The notes below the pieces were generated by a model. That model was not told the DNA's origin. It was given only the letters and a program-made list of their open reading frames with translations, and ran no database searches. Of a stretch of 64,000 bases of DNA, positions 30,418 to 37,366 are shown piece by piece. The stretch covers positions 1-64,000 of the forward strand of contig NZ_JAMXMY010000024.1 in the NCBI RefSeq assembly GCF_024055795.1, read 5' to 3'. A program made the position numbers and the translations under genes. The DNA comes from Actinoallomurus purpureus. Lineage in GTDB: Bacteria; Actinomycetota; Actinomycetes; Streptosporangiales; Streptosporangiaceae. The stretch's first letter is position 1. The number at the start of each line of letters is the position of its first letter.

Positions 30418-31530
30418 TCAGCGGCCGAAGACCCGGTGCCGGGTCGACACGGCCAGTGCCGAGTCGTCGGAGAAGATCCCGTCGACGCCCAGCCTGTACA
30501 GGTCCGCGAGGTACCGCGACGCGTCACCCTCGGCCCTCTTGAAGTTCGGCGCGCTCGGGTCGCCCTGCTGGTACTCGGCGGGCAGGAAGTTGTTCTCCGG
30601 CCGCACCGTCCACGGATGCACGTCGAGACCGGCCCGATGCGCGTCCCGTACGAGCGTCGTCGGCGCACCGGCGTGGTTGTTCGCGTCCACCGGAATGATC
30701 CGCGAGATCGCCGGACCGATGCCGTCCGCGTACGCCGCGATCCACTTCAGCCCGTCCGGCTTGACCAGATCGTCGTACGAGCGCGGGTCCTTGTTCACGA
30801 CGAAGTCGTACGGCCGGTTGCCCTGCGTGTCGATCAGCTGGATCAGGCGGATGCTCGTCTTCTTGCGCAGCTCCCGCAGGTTCGCCGTCTCGAACGACTG
30901 GATGAACACCTTGTCGTTCCGGCCCTTGAACCCGTACTTCGCCAGGTCCTTCAGCAGCTCGTCCTCCAGCGGCAGGCCGATCGACCGGAAGTACGTCGGG
31001 TGCTTCGTCTCCGGGTAGACGCCCACGTGGTGGCCGCGCGCGAACGCCAGCACCTCCTCCAGCGTCGGGATCGGGTCCAGGCCGTCGAACGCGCTGCTCC
31101 CCGGCCGCACGTCCGGCAGCCGCTCCTTCGTCCGCAGCGTCCGCAGTTGTGCGATCGTGAAATCCTCGGTGAACCAGTCCGTGCGCTGCACGCCGTCCAC
31201 CGTCTTGGTCTTCTTCAGGCCGGCGAACTCCGGATGGCTCGCCACGTCGGTCGTGTCGGCCAGCCAGTTGTCGTGCCGGGCGACGAGCACGTGATCCTTC
31301 GTCGTCACGACGTCCGGCTCGATGTAGTCGGCGCCCATCTCGGCGGCGAGCTGGTACGCGTGCAGCGTCTCCTCCGGCCGGTACGCGCTGGCGCCACGGT
31401 GCGCGATCACGATCGACTCACGCGCCCGTTGGTGCGCCGGAGCGGCGGCACTGCTGCTCGTGGTCGCCACGGCGAACGCCGTACCCGCCGTCGCAAGGGC
31501 CAGCCCGCCAGCGAGAGGTCGTCGGGACAT
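30418..31530 (-). CDS. glpQ: Secreted glycerophosphodiester phosphodiesterase
   Basis: A 370-residue exported TIM-barrel enzyme. Signal region MSRRPLAGGLALATAGTAFA; catalytic motif IVIAHRGASAYRPEET, metal ligand EPDVV, VARHDNW, and later VGVYPETKHP, VFIQSF and DVHPWTVR, all classical for GlpQ-type enzymes that hydrolyse glycerophosphodiesters to glycerol-3-phosphate and an alcohol. AGGAGGT precedes the ATG at 31530; the longer frame is not supported. Confidence 0.92.
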   Translation of the reverse strand: MSRRPLAGGLALATAGTAFAVATTSSSAAAPAHQRARESIVIAHRGASAYRPEETLHAYQLAAEMGADYIEPDVVTTKDHVLVARHDNWLADTTDVASHPEFAGLKKTKTVDGVQRTDWFTEDFTIAQLRTLRTKERLPDVRPGSSAFDGLDPIPTLEEVLAFARGHHVGVYPETKHPTYFRSIGLPLEDELLKDLAKYGFKGRNDKVFIQSFETANLRELRKKTSIRLIQLIDTQGNRPYDFVVNKDPRSYDDLVKPDGLKWIAAYADGIGPAISRIIPVDANNHAGAPTTLVRDAHRAGLDVHPWTVRPENNFLPAEYQQGDPSAPNFKRAEGDASRYLADLYRLGVDGIFSDDSALAVSTRHRVFGR

Positions 31531-31621
31531 GGAATACCTCCTGAGTCGGAACGTGCGAAGGCTCACCGGTTTGCTTAGGGATTCCCAGTGTTACGCCTGT
31601 TACGTAGGTCGCTGTGGGGGC

Positions 31622-32186
31622 GTGGAGTTGCTGTGTTTGTCGAAGGCGGCGGAGCGTTCGGGGTGCATCTGATGACGCTTCGCCGGTGGGTGGCCGACGC
31701 CCTGACGGGTTGATCTCGCTCGAATTTTCGAATCATCGAGCGGAATGTCGATGCGGATCGCTACTGTGCGTACGTGTCTCGTCACGTATCGGCAAGAGGG
31801 GTGAACGACTCCCGCCCGGACGGGTATCTGGACGTGCTCAACGACCTCACGTGTGAGATCACCGCGGCGCTGCTGGCGGAGGATCGGTTGGCGCGCACCG
31901 TCGCCGACGCGCTGGCCGATACGGGCGAGTTCGTGAGGGTGGTGCGGGTGAGGTGTGAGGACCGTTTGGCCCGGTTCGGGGTGGGCTGGCTCAAGCGCCT
32001 GTTCGCGGCGGATGGCGTTGAGCTGGAGGTGCTGCACGCCGGCGGGTCCTGTGGCCGGGGTGATCTGTGGATTTCGCGTCCTTGGTGGCGATGTTTGCGG
32101 GGCGGGTGTACGGGATGCGGTCGGGCCAGGCGTGCAGGCGGCTGCCGGCCGAGAGTGGGCAGTGCCCGGCGGGTCGTGTCGCATGA
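31622..32186 (+). pseudogene. IS607-type serine recombinase (tnpA), frameshifted
   Basis: Three frames must be joined to recover the pattern. First: a short MerR-like start LSKAAERSG then, after one missing base near 31662, VHLMTLRRWVAD. Then a resolvase-like core EDRLARFGVGWLKRLFAADGVELEVLH. Near 32070 one more base is missing; the C-terminal DFASLVAMFAGRVYGMRS is readable only in the shifted frame. Its TGA overlaps the tnpB ATG as ATGA, the usual IS607 arrangement. The middle is diverged. The enzyme cannot be made intact. Confidence 0.7.
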
Positions 32187-34198
32187 GTAGCCGTAAGCTC
32201 CCGCTCGCCGAAGGCCAGGCCGCCCGGACCGCGGCCGCCCGCGTGCTTTTGCGTGGCGGGGTGAATGAGAAGACCGGAGAGGCTCTCACGGCGCGGGTGG
32301 TGGCCGAGCGGGTGGGCTGGGCCGCTGATTTGGTCGCGGGGATGGTCGCCGGTCTGCTGGCTGGGCGTTGGAACGCCGGTGATGTGGCCGTGCTGGCGGC
32401 CGGGGTGGATGATGCGGGTCGGGTCTTACCGTCGAACGCGTGGATGGCGTTGCGCAGGCTGGGCTGGGACGTGAGGGTCCCTGAGGGGTTCAAGGTCAAT
32501 GACCGGATCGTGCGGATGGCTCAGGAGCAGGCCGGGCGGACCCTGCGATCGGCGCGGCACCGGGCGGAACTGACCGGCGGCCTCCTGGCGACCTGGCCCG
32601 CCGACCCGGCCAAGCGCACGCCGGCCGAGTGGGCCGCCGTCCGTGAGGCGATCCCCGACGGCCGGTCCCTGCCCGCCAGTGTGATCAAAGCGCGCACCAG
32701 GCAGATCGCCGCCTTCTGCGATGAGCGCGGGCGGCTTCCGGTCGATGTGTTCGACCTGGAGGACGCGCCGCGCGTGGCGCGGATGCTGGTGCTGGCCGCG
32801 GTGGACCGCCAGCAGGCCACCCTGGAACGCGCCGAGGACAACCCGGCCAGGGCCCTGCTGCGGCTGCAACTGCCGACCCGCCCGGATCCGCGCTCGTATG
32901 CCGACTGGACCTGGGTGGCCTGCCCGATCACGCTGCCGCCCACCGTCCCGCCCGGCGCGGTGCTGCACCTGCCCACTCTGCGCCCCACGACCGGGCCGGG
33001 CGGTGGCAGGGTGCACGCCGACCTGGCGTTCTCCCATGCCGTCCCCAAAGCCGCCCGGACCGGGCACACCATTGCGTTGAGCGTGGACTGGGGTCTGAAC
33101 ACCCTGCTCAGTGCCGGGGCCTGCCGGTTGTATCCCGATGGCACGATCACTGCGCTGGGGGCGGGGGCGATGTTTAGGGCCGGTGGGGTGATGGCCCGCC
33201 AGCACCGGCTGCGCCGCCACGGCGAACACCTGCACGCCAAAACCGACACCTACACCCACCTCATCGGCGGCACCCCCGACCACGCCCTGGCCGCCAAACA
33301 CGCCGTGCTGACGGCCGAACGCCGGCACGTGGCCGACCGCCGCTCAGGCCTGAACGACGCACTGGCATGGTCGGCCGCGCGGTGGGCGGTGGACCAGGCC
33401 ATCGCCGCCGGCGCGACGGTGATCTATGTGGAGGACCTGCGGTCCATGGAGGCCAAAGGCATGGGCCGCACGATGAACACCCGCCTGTCCCAGACCGTAC
33501 GCGGACAGATCCTCGAACGGATGCGGCACCTGGCCGCCGAGACCGGCATCGCCGTCGTCACCGTCCCCGCCCGCAACACATCCAAGCACTGCCCACAGTG
33601 CCTGGTCCCCTTGCGGCACTGCAAAGCACCCGACCGCCCCACCACACCCGGATGGAAATGGGCATACTGCCCCGACCCGCACTGTGGCTGGCAAGGCGAC
33701 CGCGACCACGGCGCGTGGCGCCGCATCGCCGCCCGCGGGCTGACCCACCAAAACAACACCATCGTCGTCGACCGCGGCACCGGCCAGATGGCCATCCCCC
33801 GCGTCATCGACAAGCTCGAAACCGGCGCGGTCGTCACCCCGACCGCAAGTCCTCAGGTCAGCCGGGGTGAGCGGTCCAAGACCGGACCCACCCCGCGCCG
33901 AACTCCACGCCCCGCGCCCAGGCGACGCAGGGCACCCTCCACCCCCGGCCCCCAAAGGCCGGCGGGTCAGCGTCCGGAGGGACACGCTCACACGGACCAC
34001 AAGCCGCCTCGGGCGGCCTGCCGGTACCAGGGCGTGCACACGATCAGCTCAAATACCCCCACCACCCGCCGGCACCGGTCGCGGCACCGGCCCAGGGGGG
34101 CGGCGCTGGGCGCGGGCTTCCACCTGCACGCCCACGCCACCCCACCCCGGTGGGCAGATCCCCAACCCGAAACCACAACCGGACCAAGGATCGCTTAG
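32183..34198 (+). CDS. tnpB: IS607-associated TnpB, long form (RuvC/zinc-ribbon nuclease)
   Basis: A 671-residue protein, long for TnpB (about 400). RuvC-I is ALSVDWGLNTLL (Asp302), RuvC-II VIYVEDLRSME (Glu417), a four-Cys zinc finger has HCPQC (470, 473) and CPDPHC (496, 501), followed by RuvC-III DRDHGAW (Asp506/508). The first 290 residues have no obvious match to the usual TnpB N-terminus. The final 150 residues are Arg/Pro-rich low complexity and may overlap a structured guide RNA at the element's 3' end. TnpB proteins are RNA-guided DNA nucleases. The RuvC residues look intact even though tnpA is broken. Confidence 0.75.
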   Translation: MSSRKLPLAEGQAARTAAARVLLRGGVNEKTGEALTARVVAERVGWAADLVAGMVAGLLAGRWNAGDVAVLAAGVDDAGRVLPSNAWMALRRLGWDVRVPEGFKVNDRIVRMAQEQAGRTLRSARHRAELTGGLLATWPADPAKRTPAEWAAVREAIPDGRSLPASVIKARTRQIAAFCDERGRLPVDVFDLEDAPRVARMLVLAAVDRQQATLERAEDNPARALLRLQLPTRPDPRSYADWTWVACPITLPPTVPPGAVLHLPTLRPTTGPGGGRVHADLAFSHAVPKAARTGHTIALSVDWGLNTLLSAGACRLYPDGTITALGAGAMFRAGGVMARQHRLRRHGEHLHAKTDTYTHLIGGTPDHALAAKHAVLTAERRHVADRRSGLNDALAWSAARWAVDQAIAAGATVIYVEDLRSMEAKGMGRTMNTRLSQTVRGQILERMRHLAAETGIAVVTVPARNTSKHCPQCLVPLRHCKAPDRPTTPGWKWAYCPDPHCGWQGDRDHGAWRRIAARGLTHQNNTIVVDRGTGQMAIPRVIDKLETGAVVTPTASPQVSRGERSKTGPTPRRTPRPAPRRRRAPSTPGPQRPAGQRPEGHAHTDHKPPRAACRYQGVHTISSNTPTTRRHRSRHRPRGAALGAGFHLHAHATPPRWADPQPETTTGPRIA

Positions 34199-34335
34199 CT
34201 AATCAGAGACGCTACTTCCGTGAAATGACGCCGGGGAGACCTCTCCCTTACGGGAAGCCGTCCGGAACCAGCCGTACGTTCTCGTCGCACGCCGGCCCGA
34301 ACCACGGCTGCCCTTTCATCGTGCCGTGAAAGCCG

Positions 34336-35469
34336 TCAGCCATCCACGCCGTTGATGAGCCTGCCGTCCGTCGACAAAGGAGGATCCGCGAGCTGGGGAA
34401 AGTAGTGTCGGAAGAAGAGATTGGCGGTGAGTTCCCGGCGGCTTCGCACACCCGCTTTGTCGAAAACTGATTTCAAGTGATCCTGCACCGTGTACGGAGA
34501 AAGGTGCAGGCGCCGCGCGATCTCATTGGTCGATCTGCCCCGGAGCACATGTTGGGTTATCTGGCGTTCGCGGACGGACAATCCGTAGACGTCGAGGACG
34601 ATGGCCGTGAGATCTCTCGCCTCCGCGGGCGCGATGGAAACGGCGGTCGCGGGCTCGCCGCCCTGGTCGACCGTCCAGGCGTGCAATGTGAGCCAGCGGC
34701 CCGAGCCGATGGGGGCACGGGACCGCACCGGGGTGCCGGGCGTCGCCGTGCGGGCGCGGGTGGCCAGCGCCTGAACAGCGTAGGGGCAGGTCCTGTCGGT
34801 GGCCGATCCGCTCTCCTGGAGGTGACCGACCCAGTGCCGGGCGGTGTCCGAGAGCGACCGGACCCGGAGGTCGGCATCGAGCATGATCAGCCCGGGAGCG
34901 TCGGGAAGGTCCCCACGGTCGAGGCCCGTCAGCAGCAGCGAACGCCGCAGCGCGTCCGAGGCGGGCCTGCTGATGGCCTCCGCCAGAGCCGTGTCACCGG
35001 CGTCGAACGGCCGGCTGTCCTCGCCCCGGCACAGGACCAGAAGACCCCAGACCCGGTCGCCGTCACGGAGCATCACCCGCAGTTCGTCCGCGAGCCCCAG
35101 CGGTTCGAGGATCTCCCGGTAGTACTTGCTCGCCGGCAGATCGTGGTGCGTGGACTCGCTGAGCAGGCTGACCCGGGCGGCCCGCTCGGCCAGCGCGCGA
35201 ATGTTGTCGACGTCGTCCTGCTCGACGTGCTCGATCTGGAAGAGACGGTCCATGTACTCCGGCGGGAAGCCGTGCGCGTGCTGACCGCCGGTGTCCAGCA
35301 TCGTCGACGGATCGAGCAGGACTCCGCACCACACGTCGGCCGGCATGACCTCCGCCAGCGCCCCGACGGCCCGATCGATGACCTCGACGGCCCCGATATC
35401 GGACCGAAGTTCGAACTCGAATCTCCGGACCGAATCAGCGAATGGTCGACCTGGACGTGATTTGGCCAC
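34336..35469 (-). CDS. LuxR-family regulator with N-terminal sensor domain
   Basis: A 377-residue regulator. The N-terminal 280 residues are GAF-like (no cofactor motif recognised); the C-terminal 65 residues are a LuxR HTH: GLSVRERQITQHVLRGRSTNEIARRLHLSPYTVQDHLKSVFDKAGVRSRRELTA. GTG 35469 is chosen because translation from the upstream frame start (35598) would run across the shared divergent promoter region and its palindrome (35489-35506). It faces the Ser/Pro-rich membrane protein gene. Confidence 0.75.
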   Translation of the reverse strand: MAKSRPGRPFADSVRRFEFELRSDIGAVEVIDRAVGALAEVMPADVWCGVLLDPSTMLDTGGQHAHGFPPEYMDRLFQIEHVEQDDVDNIRALAERAARVSLLSESTHHDLPASKYYREILEPLGLADELRVMLRDGDRVWGLLVLCRGEDSRPFDAGDTALAEAISRPASDALRRSLLLTGLDRGDLPDAPGLIMLDADLRVRSLSDTARHWVGHLQESGSATDRTCPYAVQALATRARTATPGTPVRSRAPIGSGRWLTLHAWTVDQGGEPATAVSIAPAEARDLTAIVLDVYGLSVRERQITQHVLRGRSTNEIARRLHLSPYTVQDHLKSVFDKAGVRSRRELTANLFFRHYFPQLADPPLSTDGRLINGVDG

Positions 35470-35488
35470 GGTGACATCGTAGTGGGCT

Positions 35489-35506
35489 ATCCCAGAAATC
35501 TGGGAT
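35489..35506. promoter_or_regulatory. 18-bp perfect palindrome in divergent spacer
   Basis: ATCCCAGA-AA-TCTGGGAT lies in the 134-bp spacer between the LuxR regulator and the Ser/Pro-rich protein gene and is followed by TTTTT. It may be the operator of the LuxR regulator, or a terminator-like hairpin. Confidence 0.5.
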
Positions 35507-35603
35507 TTTTCTCTTTCTCTCGCCGACCTACCATCGATCTCAATGGGGGGGGCGATCAGTAAACGATCTCTCTTGCGCGGATTGCTGGAAAGAGGCATGT
35601 CGT

Positions 35604-36197
35604 ATGGCTCAGTCGACGGGGAGCACGCAAACCGAACAGCCGCCGTCTCACGACCACAGAAGGCATCCCTATCGGTCCTACTGGCTTACCGGCGGTATCG
35701 CATCCGTCATCGGCGGGATCATCAGCCTGATCGCGACCGTCACCTCAGGATCGGGCTCAGGGTCGGGCTCGGCGCCGGCCCAGATGCCGGCGCCGGTATC
35801 CATAACCTCACCGCCATCACCCTTGTCGCCTTCCCCTCCCTCGTCACCGGTCTCCTCTCCGGTCTCCTCCCCGGTCTCATCACCCATCTCGTCACCCGCC
35901 TCGTCCCCGGCCATGCCGGTGGGCAACAGCCCGCTGCCCGCCATCGGGGCGATCATGGTCCCGGCGGGGTACACCGCGGCCCTGGTGCACGCGGGGCAGT
36001 GGCTCAACACGCCGGTGACCGCCCGGCTGGTCCGGGGAACGAGAGTCCGGATCTACTGCACCGTCCAAGGCGGCCTGGTCGCGGGACCCACCGGCCACCA
36101 GAGCACCCTCTGGGACAGGATCGACGGCGGCTACATCCCCGATGTCGACGTCGACACCGGAACGCAGCAGCCGGTCCGCGGCAACTGCGGCACATGA
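35604..36197 (+). CDS. Membrane-anchored Ser/Pro-rich protein with C-terminal SH3-like domain
   Basis: A 197-residue protein. A short cytoplasmic head is followed by one membrane helix (about residues 25-47), a linker of near-perfect SSPVSSPV repeats (about 65-105) and an outer domain of about 90 residues with two cysteines (VPAGYTAALVHAGQWLNTP ... VRIYCTVQGGLV ... WDRIDGGYIPDVDV), like a bacterial SH3 fold. AAAGAGG precedes the ATG. Role unknown; it is divergent from the LuxR gene. Confidence 0.65.
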   Translation: MAQSTGSTQTEQPPSHDHRRHPYRSYWLTGGIASVIGGIISLIATVTSGSGSGSGSAPAQMPAPVSITSPPSPLSPSPPSSPVSSPVSSPVSSPISSPASSPAMPVGNSPLPAIGAIMVPAGYTAALVHAGQWLNTPVTARLVRGTRVRIYCTVQGGLVAGPTGHQSTLWDRIDGGYIPDVDVDTGTQQPVRGNCGT

Positions 36198-36331
36198 GGA
36201 CCGCCGGACCCGGCGCCACGCGCGGCGCACGACGCCGGATGCACCGCCTCACCTAGCGCCGGCGACCTCCGGAGCAGACGCCCCGGCCTGGCCGTCCCCG
36301 CCCGCAGCCCGATGTGGCGGAAGACATTCGA

Positions 36332-36361
36332 TTCGCGCGCTGAGGTCAAGTCCCGTACACT
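36332..36361 (+). promoter_or_regulatory. Probable tRNA-Arg promoter
   Basis: TTCGCG (36332-36337) and TACACT (36356-36361) are 18 bp apart, with the tRNA starting 12 bp downstream. The -35 is weak. Confidence 0.45.
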
Positions 36362-36372
36362 CTTGCACGCCA

Positions 36373-36445
36373 GCAGCCGTAGCTCAACGGATAGAGCATC
36401 TGACTACGGATCAGAAGGTTGGGGGTTCGAATCCCTCCGGCTGCG
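36373..36445 (+). tRNA. tRNA-Arg(ACG)
   Basis: A 73-nt tRNA. The acceptor GCAGCCG pairs with CGGCTGC, the anticodon stem TCTGA/TCAGA encloses loop CTACGGA with anticodon ACG, and the T loop is GGTTCGAATCC. CCA is not encoded. The PP2C gene on the other strand stops in its anticodon loop. Confidence 0.95.
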
Positions 36446-37366
36446 CACCAGATCAAAGGCCCGTTCCAGTTCAAGGAACGGGCCTTTGCTTTTGGCCGTG
36501 GGAGCCACGCTGGGAGCCACTGGCTCAGGATCCGAACGGATCCCGGAGAGCCAGCAGTATGCGGCCGACGCGTCGTCGTTTGCTTTGCCGCGTGGCCAGC
36601 GTTCGCCGTGAGGGTCGCTGTCCTCAGCCACGCGGACCCGGCGGATCAGCTCGGCCGGTCCCTCTTCCCCGAGAAGCTTGAGCGTGTCGGTCCAGTCGGT
36701 GAGGCCGAAGCGGTCGACTAGGCGGCTTGCGCCGTCGCTGAGCAGGGCGGCGGCCCGCACGGTGTCGGCCGGAAGCGATCCGGTCAACGCGTGCGTCGCG
36801 GCAGCCGGGTCGGTGTTGGCGACCCAGAAGCCTCCTTCGGTGTTGCGGTAGGAGGCGAGGGATTCGGTGTAGGAGCGGAGTGCTTTGGCGTGTTCAGGGC
36901 TTCCGGTGGGCAGGGCGTCCATCTCGGAGCGCAGGGTTCGGCTGGTCTGTGCAAGGCGGTCATCGGTCACGACGGTGGGAGCACCGTCGAGGACATCGAG
37001 CACCAGGACTGAGTCCGCCAGCACCAGGTATTCCAGGTCACGTCCGTTTCGCCGTACGGCGATCGCCGTCGCGGACGGGGTGCCAGGGTGGGTGAGGTCG
37101 CAGGTGTCAGCGTGCATGTCACGTACCCGGTTGATCCCGACCGCGAGCGCTTCGGTGAGCGGCCGGCGGGGCGTGACGCTCGCTTCGATGAGGAGTTGTG
37201 CACCGAGTTGGCGCGCGTACCAGGCGACACCATGGGAACACCCGGACTCGGTTCCGGTAGGCGTGCCCGCACCGTCCAAGAGAACGACCACGTCATTTGA
37301 TGCGGCGACGAAGTCCTCGTTCAGTCGTTCGGTCGATCCGGGAGCCGAGGCGAGCCAGACGCGCAT
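36404..37366 (-). CDS. PP2C-like protein phosphatase
   Basis: A 320-residue protein of PPM/PP2C type: STERLNEDFVAAS, VVLLDGAGTP, HPGTPSATAIAVRRNGRDLEYLVLADSVLVL and ALLSDGASRLVDRFG carry the metal-binding Asp residues in the expected order. The last residues RRDSNPQPSDP are read antisense through tRNA-Arg, with the stop in its anticodon loop, so the real domain probably ends near residue 290. ATG follows directly after the TAA of the upstream HTH gene (TAAATG), so the two are coupled. It may dephosphorylate a partner of the HTH protein (inference). Confidence 0.75.
   Translation of the reverse strand: MRVWLASAPGSTERLNEDFVAASNDVVVLLDGAGTPTGTESGCSHGVAWYARQLGAQLLIEASVTPRRPLTEALAVGINRVRDMHADTCDLTHPGTPSATAIAVRRNGRDLEYLVLADSVLVLDVLDGAPTVVTDDRLAQTSRTLRSEMDALPTGSPEHAKALRSYTESLASYRNTEGGFWVANTDPAAATHALTGSLPADTVRAAALLSDGASRLVDRFGLTDWTDTLKLLGEEGPAELIRRVRVAEDSDPHGERWPRGKANDDASAAYCWLSGIRSDPEPVAPSVAPTAKSKGPFLELERAFDLVRSRRDSNPQPSDP
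36455..36490 (+). terminator. tRNA-Arg terminator
   Basis: Perfect 13-bp arms (36455-36467, 36475-36487) with T-rich end follow the tRNA. Confidence 0.85.

What the first reader, a model, noticed from the sequence alone, without database searches (positions are those of the whole stretch)
31622..34198. Broken IS607 tnpA beside an intact, unusually long TnpB
tnpA needs at least two frameshift corrections, while the 671-residue TnpB keeps all RuvC and zinc-finger residues. A TnpB surviving after its transposase died suggests retention as a nuclease or domesticated RNA-guided protein. The 290-residue N-terminal region and the 150-residue Arg/Pro tail are not normal; the tail may overlap a guide-RNA gene.
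Basis: partly seen in the sequence, partly recalled or inferred. Interest (0 to 1): 0.7.

Follow-up and report, generated by a model that had tools for sequence, protein, structure and literature searches.

The report
Guide RNA nested inside TnpB gene
A decayed jumping gene in a soil actinomycete keeps an apparently intact RNA-guided DNA-cutting enzyme whose long tail is read both as protein and as the guide RNA, and the same genome also holds tiny mobile elements that carry the guide RNA alone.

Summary
Observation confirmed. The window holds a 2,655-bp IS607-type element (31559-34213) with a wrecked tnpA and an open 671-codon tnpB (32183-34198) with RuvC and zinc-ribbon residues. The length is a family trait: 41 of 42 long copies keep the tail motif. 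The own copies and one of another Actinoallomurus species share tnpA lesions (six copies), yet tnpB shows purifying selection (dN/dS 0.17-0.38 in the main domains of five of them). Fifteen of 61 loci have a near-full tnpA.

New here: the guide RNA lies inside the tail's coding sequence. Codons 564-632 have depressed synonymous change and covarying helices. Codons 633-657 have ordinary synonymous change and the lowest amino-acid change of six segments (pN/pS 0.13). Indels keep frame up to about codon 657, not beyond. A model of the RNA then found guide-only mini-elements: 7 complete in this genome (238-267 bp), and 22 further right-ended copies in 8 of 22 other TnpB-bearing genomes. They lack the 633-657 segment and their indels ignore frame.

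'Domesticated' is not supported; 'retained nuclease' and 'tail overlaps a guide-RNA gene' are. Transcription, cleavage and use of the solo guides in trans are inferred.

The parts
31559..34213 (+). whole IS607-type element, left end AGGCTCAC..., right end ...AATCAGAGACGCT
   Evidence: five copies in the genome share both ends and diverge abruptly outside
31622..32182 (+). tnpA pseudogene (IS607 serine recombinase remnant)
   Evidence: TnpA matches in two frames from 31876 on; lesions shared with L002-L005 and L007; NCBIfam transpos_IS607 26.9 bits on a fragment, under the cut-off of 110
32183..34198 (+). tnpB, 671 codons
   Evidence: open frame; Pfam, NCBIfam and PHROGs TnpB/Cas12f-type matches
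32183..33052 (+). N-terminal 290 residues, probably an enlarged recognition lobe
   Evidence: conserved over the family; AF2 elements at low confidence; Foldseek aligns the model to Cas12f over about 470 columns with low TM-scores
33872..34078 (+). tail codons 564-632: coding and guide-RNA core at once
   Evidence: many four-fold sites invariant or nearly so, pS 0.248 vs 0.465-0.495 in the main domains; covarying helices
34079..34153 (+). tail codons 633-657 (HRPRGAALGAGFHLHAHATPPRW type), protein-level selection
   Evidence: pN/pS 0.13 with pS 0.493; codon periodicity; segment absent from guide-only elements
33861..34213 (+). guide RNA (reRNA) scaffold; a guide would begin at 34214
   Evidence: RNAalifold and pair counts; covariance model R1 matches 33904-34032, the window copy being one of its training rows. 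The 5' end is inferred
33969..33974 (+). strand AGCGTC, pairs with 34208-34213 (pseudoknot in the preferred structure)
   Evidence: 99.5% paired cells, almost invariant in 36 copies; 99.4% in 27 guide-only RNAs
34208..34213 (+). terminal GACGCT, last bases of the element and 3' end of the scaffold
34042..34048 (+). strand pairing with 34198-34204 (one mismatch in the window copy; GATTGGC/GCCAATC in guide-only elements)
   Evidence: window pairing read by eye; pair counts (columns found)

Best explanation
This is a tnpA-dead, tnpB-alive copy of an uncharacterised actinobacterial IS607-type element. Its long TnpB (652-677 aa in 42 copies) has a translated tail of which codons 564-632 also form the guide-RNA scaffold, ending at the element's right end so that the flanking host DNA becomes the guide. 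Shown by sequence: the nested architecture, dual selection (RNA plus protein), covariation, shared lesions in tnpA, purifying selection on tnpB among the copies that carry them, and guide-only mini-elements with the same ends. Inferred: TnpB trims its own mRNA to the reRNA, cuts the copy of the insertion site that lacks the element and so keeps it in the genome; it may also load the guides of the mini-elements in trans, which would give this genome 14 RNA copies (12 with the right end) for five tnpB genes, one of them with a stop, and a reason for TnpB to outlast TnpA. The selected C-terminal peptide (codons 633-657) sits in a loop of the RNA and must act as protein, most likely in reRNA binding or cis assembly (inference).
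For: Tail motif in 41 of 42 long copies. Four-fold site heterozygosity 0.184 and 0.171 in codons 571-600 and 601-630 vs 0.445 and 0.426 expected; 0.448 vs 0.451 in 631-660. pN/pS of six segments 0.38, 0.33, 0.67, 0.60, 0.13, 0.71. Gap runs: 22 of 23 are multiples of 3 in columns 1-374 of A2, 2 of 8 after; beyond residue 600, where the row filter no longer forces the frame, 14 of 15. The RNA core in guide-only elements has 2 of 13 multiples of 3, in tnpB-linked copies 9 of 9. Covariation: 37 double-change cells vs 8.3 shuffled, 96.7% paired vs 28-43% slid; guide-only set 63 vs 23.9, 95.1% vs 30-41%. R1 matches 22 of 27 sources, 26 of which were not used to build it. A Streptomyces group 48% identical in the core keeps the codon phase CAG CGT CCG, a GFHHLHA motif and the AGAGACGCT end. 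Shared tnpA lesions, clade, dN/dS. Mini-elements.
Against: No transcript, protein or cleavage data. L002 of this genome has a stop in tnpB. The shared lesions could have spread by gene conversion. The segment borders were chosen after seeing the alignment; in close pairs the 633-657 ratio is noisy (0.05-0.77) and the linker 521-563 shows little or no constraint (0.45-1.78). P1 and the AGCGTC/GACGCT helix hardly vary, so they rest on complementarity. The structures were drawn from the same alignments, which favours them against slid controls; in A4 'further pair types' was reached by 29 of 500 shuffles. R1 did not match L079 or L080, nor L035, L054 and L060, and its matches to the distant group (24.9-28.4 bits, E 0.0006-0.003) are little above an unchecked match of 24.0 bits. 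AF2 confidence is low. No empty site or TAM was found. Trans use of solo guides is untested.
Confidence: 0.75

Rival explanations
1. The tail is only a read-through of the RNA gene and has no function as protein, as described for the C-terminal domain of ISDra2 TnpB.
For: In ISDra2 the C-terminal domain is disordered, poorly conserved and dispensable (PMC10097598, PMC11844463, passages read). AF2 gives no structure for the tail, at low confidence.
Against: Codons 633-657 have the lowest pN/pS of six segments with normal pS; triplet indels in tnpB-linked copies only; the segment is missing from guide-only RNAs; a similar motif in a group 48% identical in the core.
Confidence: 0.1
2. The conserved RNA-like pattern is a DNA-binding region for the transposase, not a guide RNA.
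For: The last bases are the element's right end and must be recognised by TnpA (established for transposon ends in general; no call).
Against: Compensatory changes in several helices; conservation reaches about 350 bp inside; kept in copies whose tnpA carries shared lesions.
Confidence: 0.06
3. A host-domesticated TnpB, for example a TldR-like RNA-guided repressor or a defence nuclease.
For: TnpB outlives TnpA; PADLOC models of Cas12 effectors match weakly.
Against: Five copies at five sites with precise element ends, catalytic residues intact. TldR loses RuvC residues (recalled, no call). The neighbourhood was not searched for defence genes.
Confidence: 0.07
4. The five copies lost tnpA independently and recently; TnpB is intact only because there was no time to decay.
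For: Copies differ in their further tnpA deletions.
Against: All five and the copy of another Actinoallomurus species share an 11-base gap and the same derived block, and dS between the copies compared is 0.28-0.49 in the N-terminal and RuvC segments.
Confidence: 0.08

Closest known systems
ISDra2 TnpB and its omega/reRNA (IS200/IS605)
   Same: RuvC nuclease; guide-RNA gene overlaps the 3' end of tnpB and the right end of the element (PMC10097598, passages)
   Different: 408 aa; there the functionally important parts of gene and RNA are said not to overlap except for a few nucleotides and the C-terminal domain is dispensable; here the RNA core lies in a conserved tail with a further protein-selected segment; serine recombinase, not Y1
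RAGATH-18-guided IS607 TnpB (ISFba1)
   Same: IS607 context, TnpB with reRNA downstream (PMC11061315, passages)
   Different: about 390 aa on average; its reRNA is described as totally independent of the coding sequence; no RAGATH-18 match here
IS1341-type tnpB-only elements
   Same: tnpB between element ends without a working tnpA
   Different: a tnpA remnant is present, so by the rule in PMC9956272 (passage) this counts as decay of IS607, not IS1341
Stand-alone omega-RNAs of IscB (Altae-Tran 2021, recalled, not read)
   Same: guide-RNA genes away from the nuclease gene, thought to act in trans
   Different: here they are miniature IS607-type elements for a TnpB, with left end, guide RNA and right end only
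Cas12f / Cas12g effectors
   Same: nearest solved structures by profile and, for Cas12f, by fold
   Different: no direct repeats of 20 or more bases, at most 200 bases apart, in 30500-36500; IS607 tnpA partner in relatives

Membership tests
IS607 family element | IS607-type serine transposase TnpA upstream of tnpB | tested here: met
   for the family: two intact TnpAs tested score 130 and 142 bits on NCBIfam transpos_IS607, cut-off 110; 15 of 61 loci have a near-full match next to tnpB; in the window only a pseudogene
IS607 family element | no terminal inverted repeats, no target duplication | tested here: inconclusive
   by eye the ends AGGCTCAC and GACGCT are not inverted repeats; no inverted-repeat search was run and no empty site was found
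TnpB (OMEGA nuclease) | RuvC D-E-D and zinc ribbon | tested here: met
   invariant in A1; Pfam TNB domain above gathering score; full-length guided_TnpB model below its cut-off
TnpB (OMEGA nuclease) | guide RNA from the right end of the element | tested here: met
   structure and covariation; expression not tested
TnpB (OMEGA nuclease) | RNA-guided DNA cleavage | not testable with these tools
   needs the bench
ISDra2-type overlap | C-terminal domain not conserved and not overlapping essential RNA | tested here: not met
RAGATH-18 reRNA | match to Rfam RAGATH-18 | tested here: not met
   no such match in window 31400-34600 (E up to 5) or in 5 mini-element loci (E up to 1); whether the model is in this release was not looked up
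CRISPR type V effector | CRISPR array nearby | tested here: not met
   no direct repeats of 20 or more bases, at most 200 bases apart, in 30500-36500; further out not searched
IS1341 | tnpB only, with no tnpA-derived sequence | tested here: not met
   tnpA remnant present
TldR / domesticated TnpB | loss of RuvC catalytic residues and a fixed host locus | tested here: not met
   residues kept; five scattered copies; the definition is recalled

The most novel reading that the evidence does not exclude
A mobile nuclease-guide network: a long TnpB whose translated, selected tail is overprinted on its own guide RNA, plus a dispersed family of guide-only mini-elements that borrow this TnpB in trans. 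TnpB outlives its transposase because it keeps the whole guide-bearing family in the genome, and codons 633-657 are a dedicated peptide (reRNA capture, or a nascent-chain signal that couples translation to guide release) that the solo guides do not need to encode.
Probability: 0.35. Interest if true: 0.8.

Novelty: new variant of a known kind. Interest (0 to 1): 0.64.

Why it matters
Published work on ISDra2 concludes that essential parts of tnpB and its guide RNA avoid overlapping. Here the RNA core and a selected protein tail share the same bases, with a natural control: the same RNA freed of coding in mini-elements. That makes two questions directly testable: what a TnpB tail does, and whether a TnpB can serve mobile guides in trans. 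It also gives a case of TnpB outlasting its transposase under purifying selection, with several copies to compare.

Tried and rejected
Rfam gave no usable match. Viral contigs and phages gave no relative. Relatives gave no empty site for the window insertion (right flank only), so the TAM and crossover bases stay open; a nearly constant A before GGCTCAC is noted only. AF2 with 27 rows was poor; Foldseek on it gives the TnpB/Cas12 family and nothing finer. RNAalifold on A2 paired 33975-33981 with a 3' partner; I prefer the CCCTCC/GGAGGG stem with a pseudoknot because it can be drawn in both sets, but its bases hardly vary and the choice is not proven. Domestication, CRISPR origin and a transposase-site reading were considered and rejected for the reasons given. 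The only near-full IS607 tnpA found in the genome with our query (C23) sits with a 325-aa TnpB-like ORF of another kind. A cross-genus claim for the shared tnpA lesions was dropped: identical hit coordinates indicate that the 'same genus' genome G003 is Actinoallomurus iriomotensis, so L007 is another species of the same genus.

Dropped rows: of 61 loci, 42 entered the protein alignment (open frame of at least 600 aa, match starting by residue 10 and reaching residue 600); L002 was thereby left out of dN/dS and tree. 37 remained after near-duplicates were removed, 36 with a found right end in A2; the tree used 38. dN/dS was run for ten pairs: six among four own copies, three of the four with L007 (not L004-L007), and L001-L006. 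Of 121 R1 matches, 34 were below 96 bits and 32 of these were fetched (two partial ones in G068 were not); 7 had homology to the window TnpB within about 500 bp, 25 had none, and 22 of the 25 had the right end; a left end was recognised by pattern in 10 of the 22. The 87 stronger matches were not checked one by one for an adjoining tnpB. A4 holds 27 distinct RNAs (29 less two duplicates).
Full report
WHAT IS THERE. The window carries a 2,655-bp element, 31559-34213. Five copies in the same 9.25-Mb genome (the other four 85-87% identical to the window TnpB) align from AGGCTCAC at the left end (AGGCCCAC in L002, GGGCTCAC in L003) to GACGCT at the right end and diverge abruptly outside. The window's tnpB is open for 671 codons. 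Residues fitting the RuvC and zinc-ribbon sites are invariant among 27 aligned members. Family models place the C-terminal part with TnpB/Cas12f; the nearest solved chains by profile are Cas12g and Cas12f, by the RuvC part. A low-confidence AF2 model (pLDDT 51, pTM 0.33) with a helical stretch set in a beta-rich N-terminal part matches Cas12f, ISFba1 TnpB and Fanzor2 by fold, with TM-scores of 0.13-0.31 for the matches at E up to 0.001. So the 290-residue N-terminus is most likely an enlarged recognition lobe; this is weakly supported.

THE FAMILY. One scan of GTDB-type genomes gave 56 loci, by their titles all actinomycetes. With the five own copies, 61 loci were examined. 42 have a frame of at least 600 aa covering residues 10-600 (652-677 aa); beyond residue 600, 41 of 42 keep GFHxHAH, L037 being the exception. 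The other 19 did not pass that filter (contig ends, stops, frameshifts or deletions). A near-full, stop-free tnpA match adjoins tnpB in 15 of 61; two tested ones pass the NCBIfam IS607 cut-off. A parsimony count on the best 38-row tree needs five changes of tnpA state, which suggests repeated loss, though 13 of 35 inner branches are weak. A more distant group on Streptomyces plasmids (48% over the core; three records) and haloarchaeal TnpBs (22-25%; the one opened, L080, has an annotated IS607 transposase next to it) are related.

TNPA DIED FIRST. The window copy, the other four and the copy of Actinoallomurus iriomotensis (L007) share an 11-base gap and a common derived block in tnpA. The four own copies that could be placed group with L007 (99/94 support); L002 was not in the tree. 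The window genome appears to belong to that genus: the 'same genus' genome G003 and the genome of L007 (G061) give identical hit coordinates. Among these five copies (nine pairs) dN/dS is 0.28-0.38 in the N-terminal region and 0.17-0.25 in RuvC, at dS 0.28-0.49; the linker 521-563 is loose (0.45-1.78). tnpB was thus kept for some time after tnpA was damaged, though L002 now has a stop. The copies sit at different sites with precise ends, which fits mobilisation in trans (inferred).

THE TAIL IS TWO THINGS. Codons 571-600 and 601-630: four-fold degenerate sites have heterozygosity 0.184 and 0.171 against 0.445 and 0.426 expected from the core for the same amino acids (0 of 5,000 draws as low). 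Of the 30-codon blocks outside the tail three are mildly low (p 0.03-0.04). Some unusual third bases are the same in 37 of 37 copies. Codons 633-657: pS 0.493, like the N-terminal region, but pN 0.066, the lowest of six segments (ratio 0.13; RuvC 0.33), with strong codon periodicity (0 of 2,000 permutations). The borders were chosen after looking, and in close pairs the ratio is noisy (0.05-0.77). Codons 658-671: ratio 0.71. Gap runs are multiples of three in 22 of 23 cases in columns 1-374 and in 2 of 8 after; past residue 600, where the row filter has no hold, in 14 of 15. Runs at one place are not independent. The protein under selection therefore ends at about residue 657.

THE RNA. On 36 right ends (alignment A2), a 35-pair structure has 97.8% paired cells against 31-43% when slid, and 36 double-change cells against 6.7 in shuffles. 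A 42-pair version with the CCCTCC/GGAGGG stem and a pseudoknot between 33969-33974 and 34208-34213 has 96.7% and 37 against 8.3; those two helices hardly vary, so they rest on complementarity, and structures drawn from the same rows are favoured against slid ones. A covariance model R1 was built from 36 tails and run on 27 sources, of which only the window was in its training set: 22 of 27 match at E up to 0.01, the window and 16 others at 74-134 bits, L051 (cut) at 50.5 and L055 at 44.1, the 48%-identical group at 24.9-28.4 bits (E 0.0006-0.003); an unchecked second match in L058 has 24.0 bits. L035, L054, L060, L079 and L080 gave none. The distant group keeps CAG-CGT-CCG in the same codon phase, a GFHHLHA motif near the C-terminus and an AGAGACGCT end, which supports its weak RNA match. 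The RNA is in no Rfam family at the thresholds used.

GUIDE-ONLY MINI-ELEMENTS. R1 on the own genome gave 14 matches: five in tnpB and nine elsewhere. Of the nine, seven are complete mini-elements of 238-267 bp with a left end, the RNA and the right end; L099 and L100 lack the usual right end. A DNA search added three short fragments. In 22 other genomes chosen for having this TnpB, R1 matched 22 of 22, 121 matches in all; 32 of the 34 below 96 bits were fetched: 7 have homology to the window TnpB within about 500 bp, 25 do not, and 22 of the 25 carry the right end, in 8 of 22 genomes; a left end was recognised by pattern in 10 of the 22, and L162 and L165 look partly deleted. None of the 41 stretches (32 plus 9 own) has TnpA homology. 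Copies with the same RNA sequence and different flanks (L168/L170; L171/L172) point to recent movement. Of 60 genomes, the own one included, only the own and G003 match (stricter filters). On 27 distinct solo RNAs a 52-pair structure has 95.1% paired cells against 30-41% slid and 63 double-change cells against 23.9 shuffled; one of five measures (further pair types) was reached by 29 of 500 shuffles.

THE NATURAL CONTROL. In solo RNAs the core has gap runs that are multiples of three in 2 of 13 cases; in tnpB-linked copies 9 of 9, three of which lie where the filter forces the frame. The loop that holds codons 633-657 in tnpB is 123-166 nt, but 7-57 nt in solos. So the frame is kept because the tail is protein, and the 633-657 segment is not needed by the RNA.

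HOW IT MOST LIKELY WORKS. Inferred from the family: TnpB can trim its own mRNA to the guide RNA (PMC10278001, passages read), the right flank is the guide, and cutting the site that lacks the element favours its retention; a gene drive of insertion sequences in plasmids by such nucleases is reported (PMC11870625, title and start of abstract in a listing only). Here one RNA strand serves both. The solo guides have the same scaffold and should be usable by the same TnpB, which would make TnpB worth keeping without TnpA. The peptide 633-657 could hold the reRNA or act on the translating ribosome; this is open.

AGAINST WHAT IS KNOWN. For ISDra2 the omega RNA overlaps residues 335-408, but the important regions of gene and RNA do not overlap except for a few nucleotides, and the C-terminal domain is dispensable (PMC10097598, PMC11844463; passages read). 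RAGATH-18 IS607 TnpBs have a guide independent of the coding sequence (PMC11061315, passage). IS607 TnpBs in six surveyed species measure 361-447 aa (PMC9956272, passage; its seed set left out sequences over 600 aa). In the listings of nine searches and the passages read I saw no description of this family, of a selected tail or of TnpB guide-only elements; the library holds open-licence papers only, and stand-alone IscB guides are known to me from recall (Altae-Tran 2021). I therefore class it as a new variant of a known kind.

LIMITS. No expression or activity data; no TAM or empty site; the solo guides' link to this TnpB is by scaffold similarity and co-occurrence; the genome counts come from genomes chosen for having TnpB.

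Noticed in passing
own genome G000: C4, C8, C11, C14, C21, C23, C24, C26 (loci L092-L100): Nine guide-RNA copies without tnpB, seven of them complete 238-267-bp mini-elements; two (L099, L100) share a different 3' sequence in place of the right end.
   Followed up: yes
left end of the mini-elements, about 60 nt before the RNA (L092-L098, L171-L184): A conserved block of roughly 25 nt directly before the RNA may be its promoter; a similar left end precedes tnpA in full elements (by eye).
   Followed up: partly
Micromonospora loci L010, L011, L013, L016, L019, L026, L030, L032: These copies keep a match only to the first part of tnpA (HTH region) before tnpB and lie in one clade of ten, so a tnpA-deleted form seems to have multiplied.
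   Followed up: partly
L078, L081, L082 (Streptomyces plasmids): A divergent group of TnpB, about 730 aa, 48% identical in the core, with a still longer tail and the same right-end bases.
   Followed up: partly
G000:C23:43901-44464 (L157): The only near-full IS607 tnpA found in the genome with our query sits with a short 325-aa TnpB-like ORF of another kind.
   Followed up: partly
window 30418-31566 (- strand) and 34336-35598 (- strand): The element lies between a gene whose translation looks like a glycerophosphodiester phosphodiesterase and one with a LuxR-type C-terminus (by eye, no family search).
   Followed up: no
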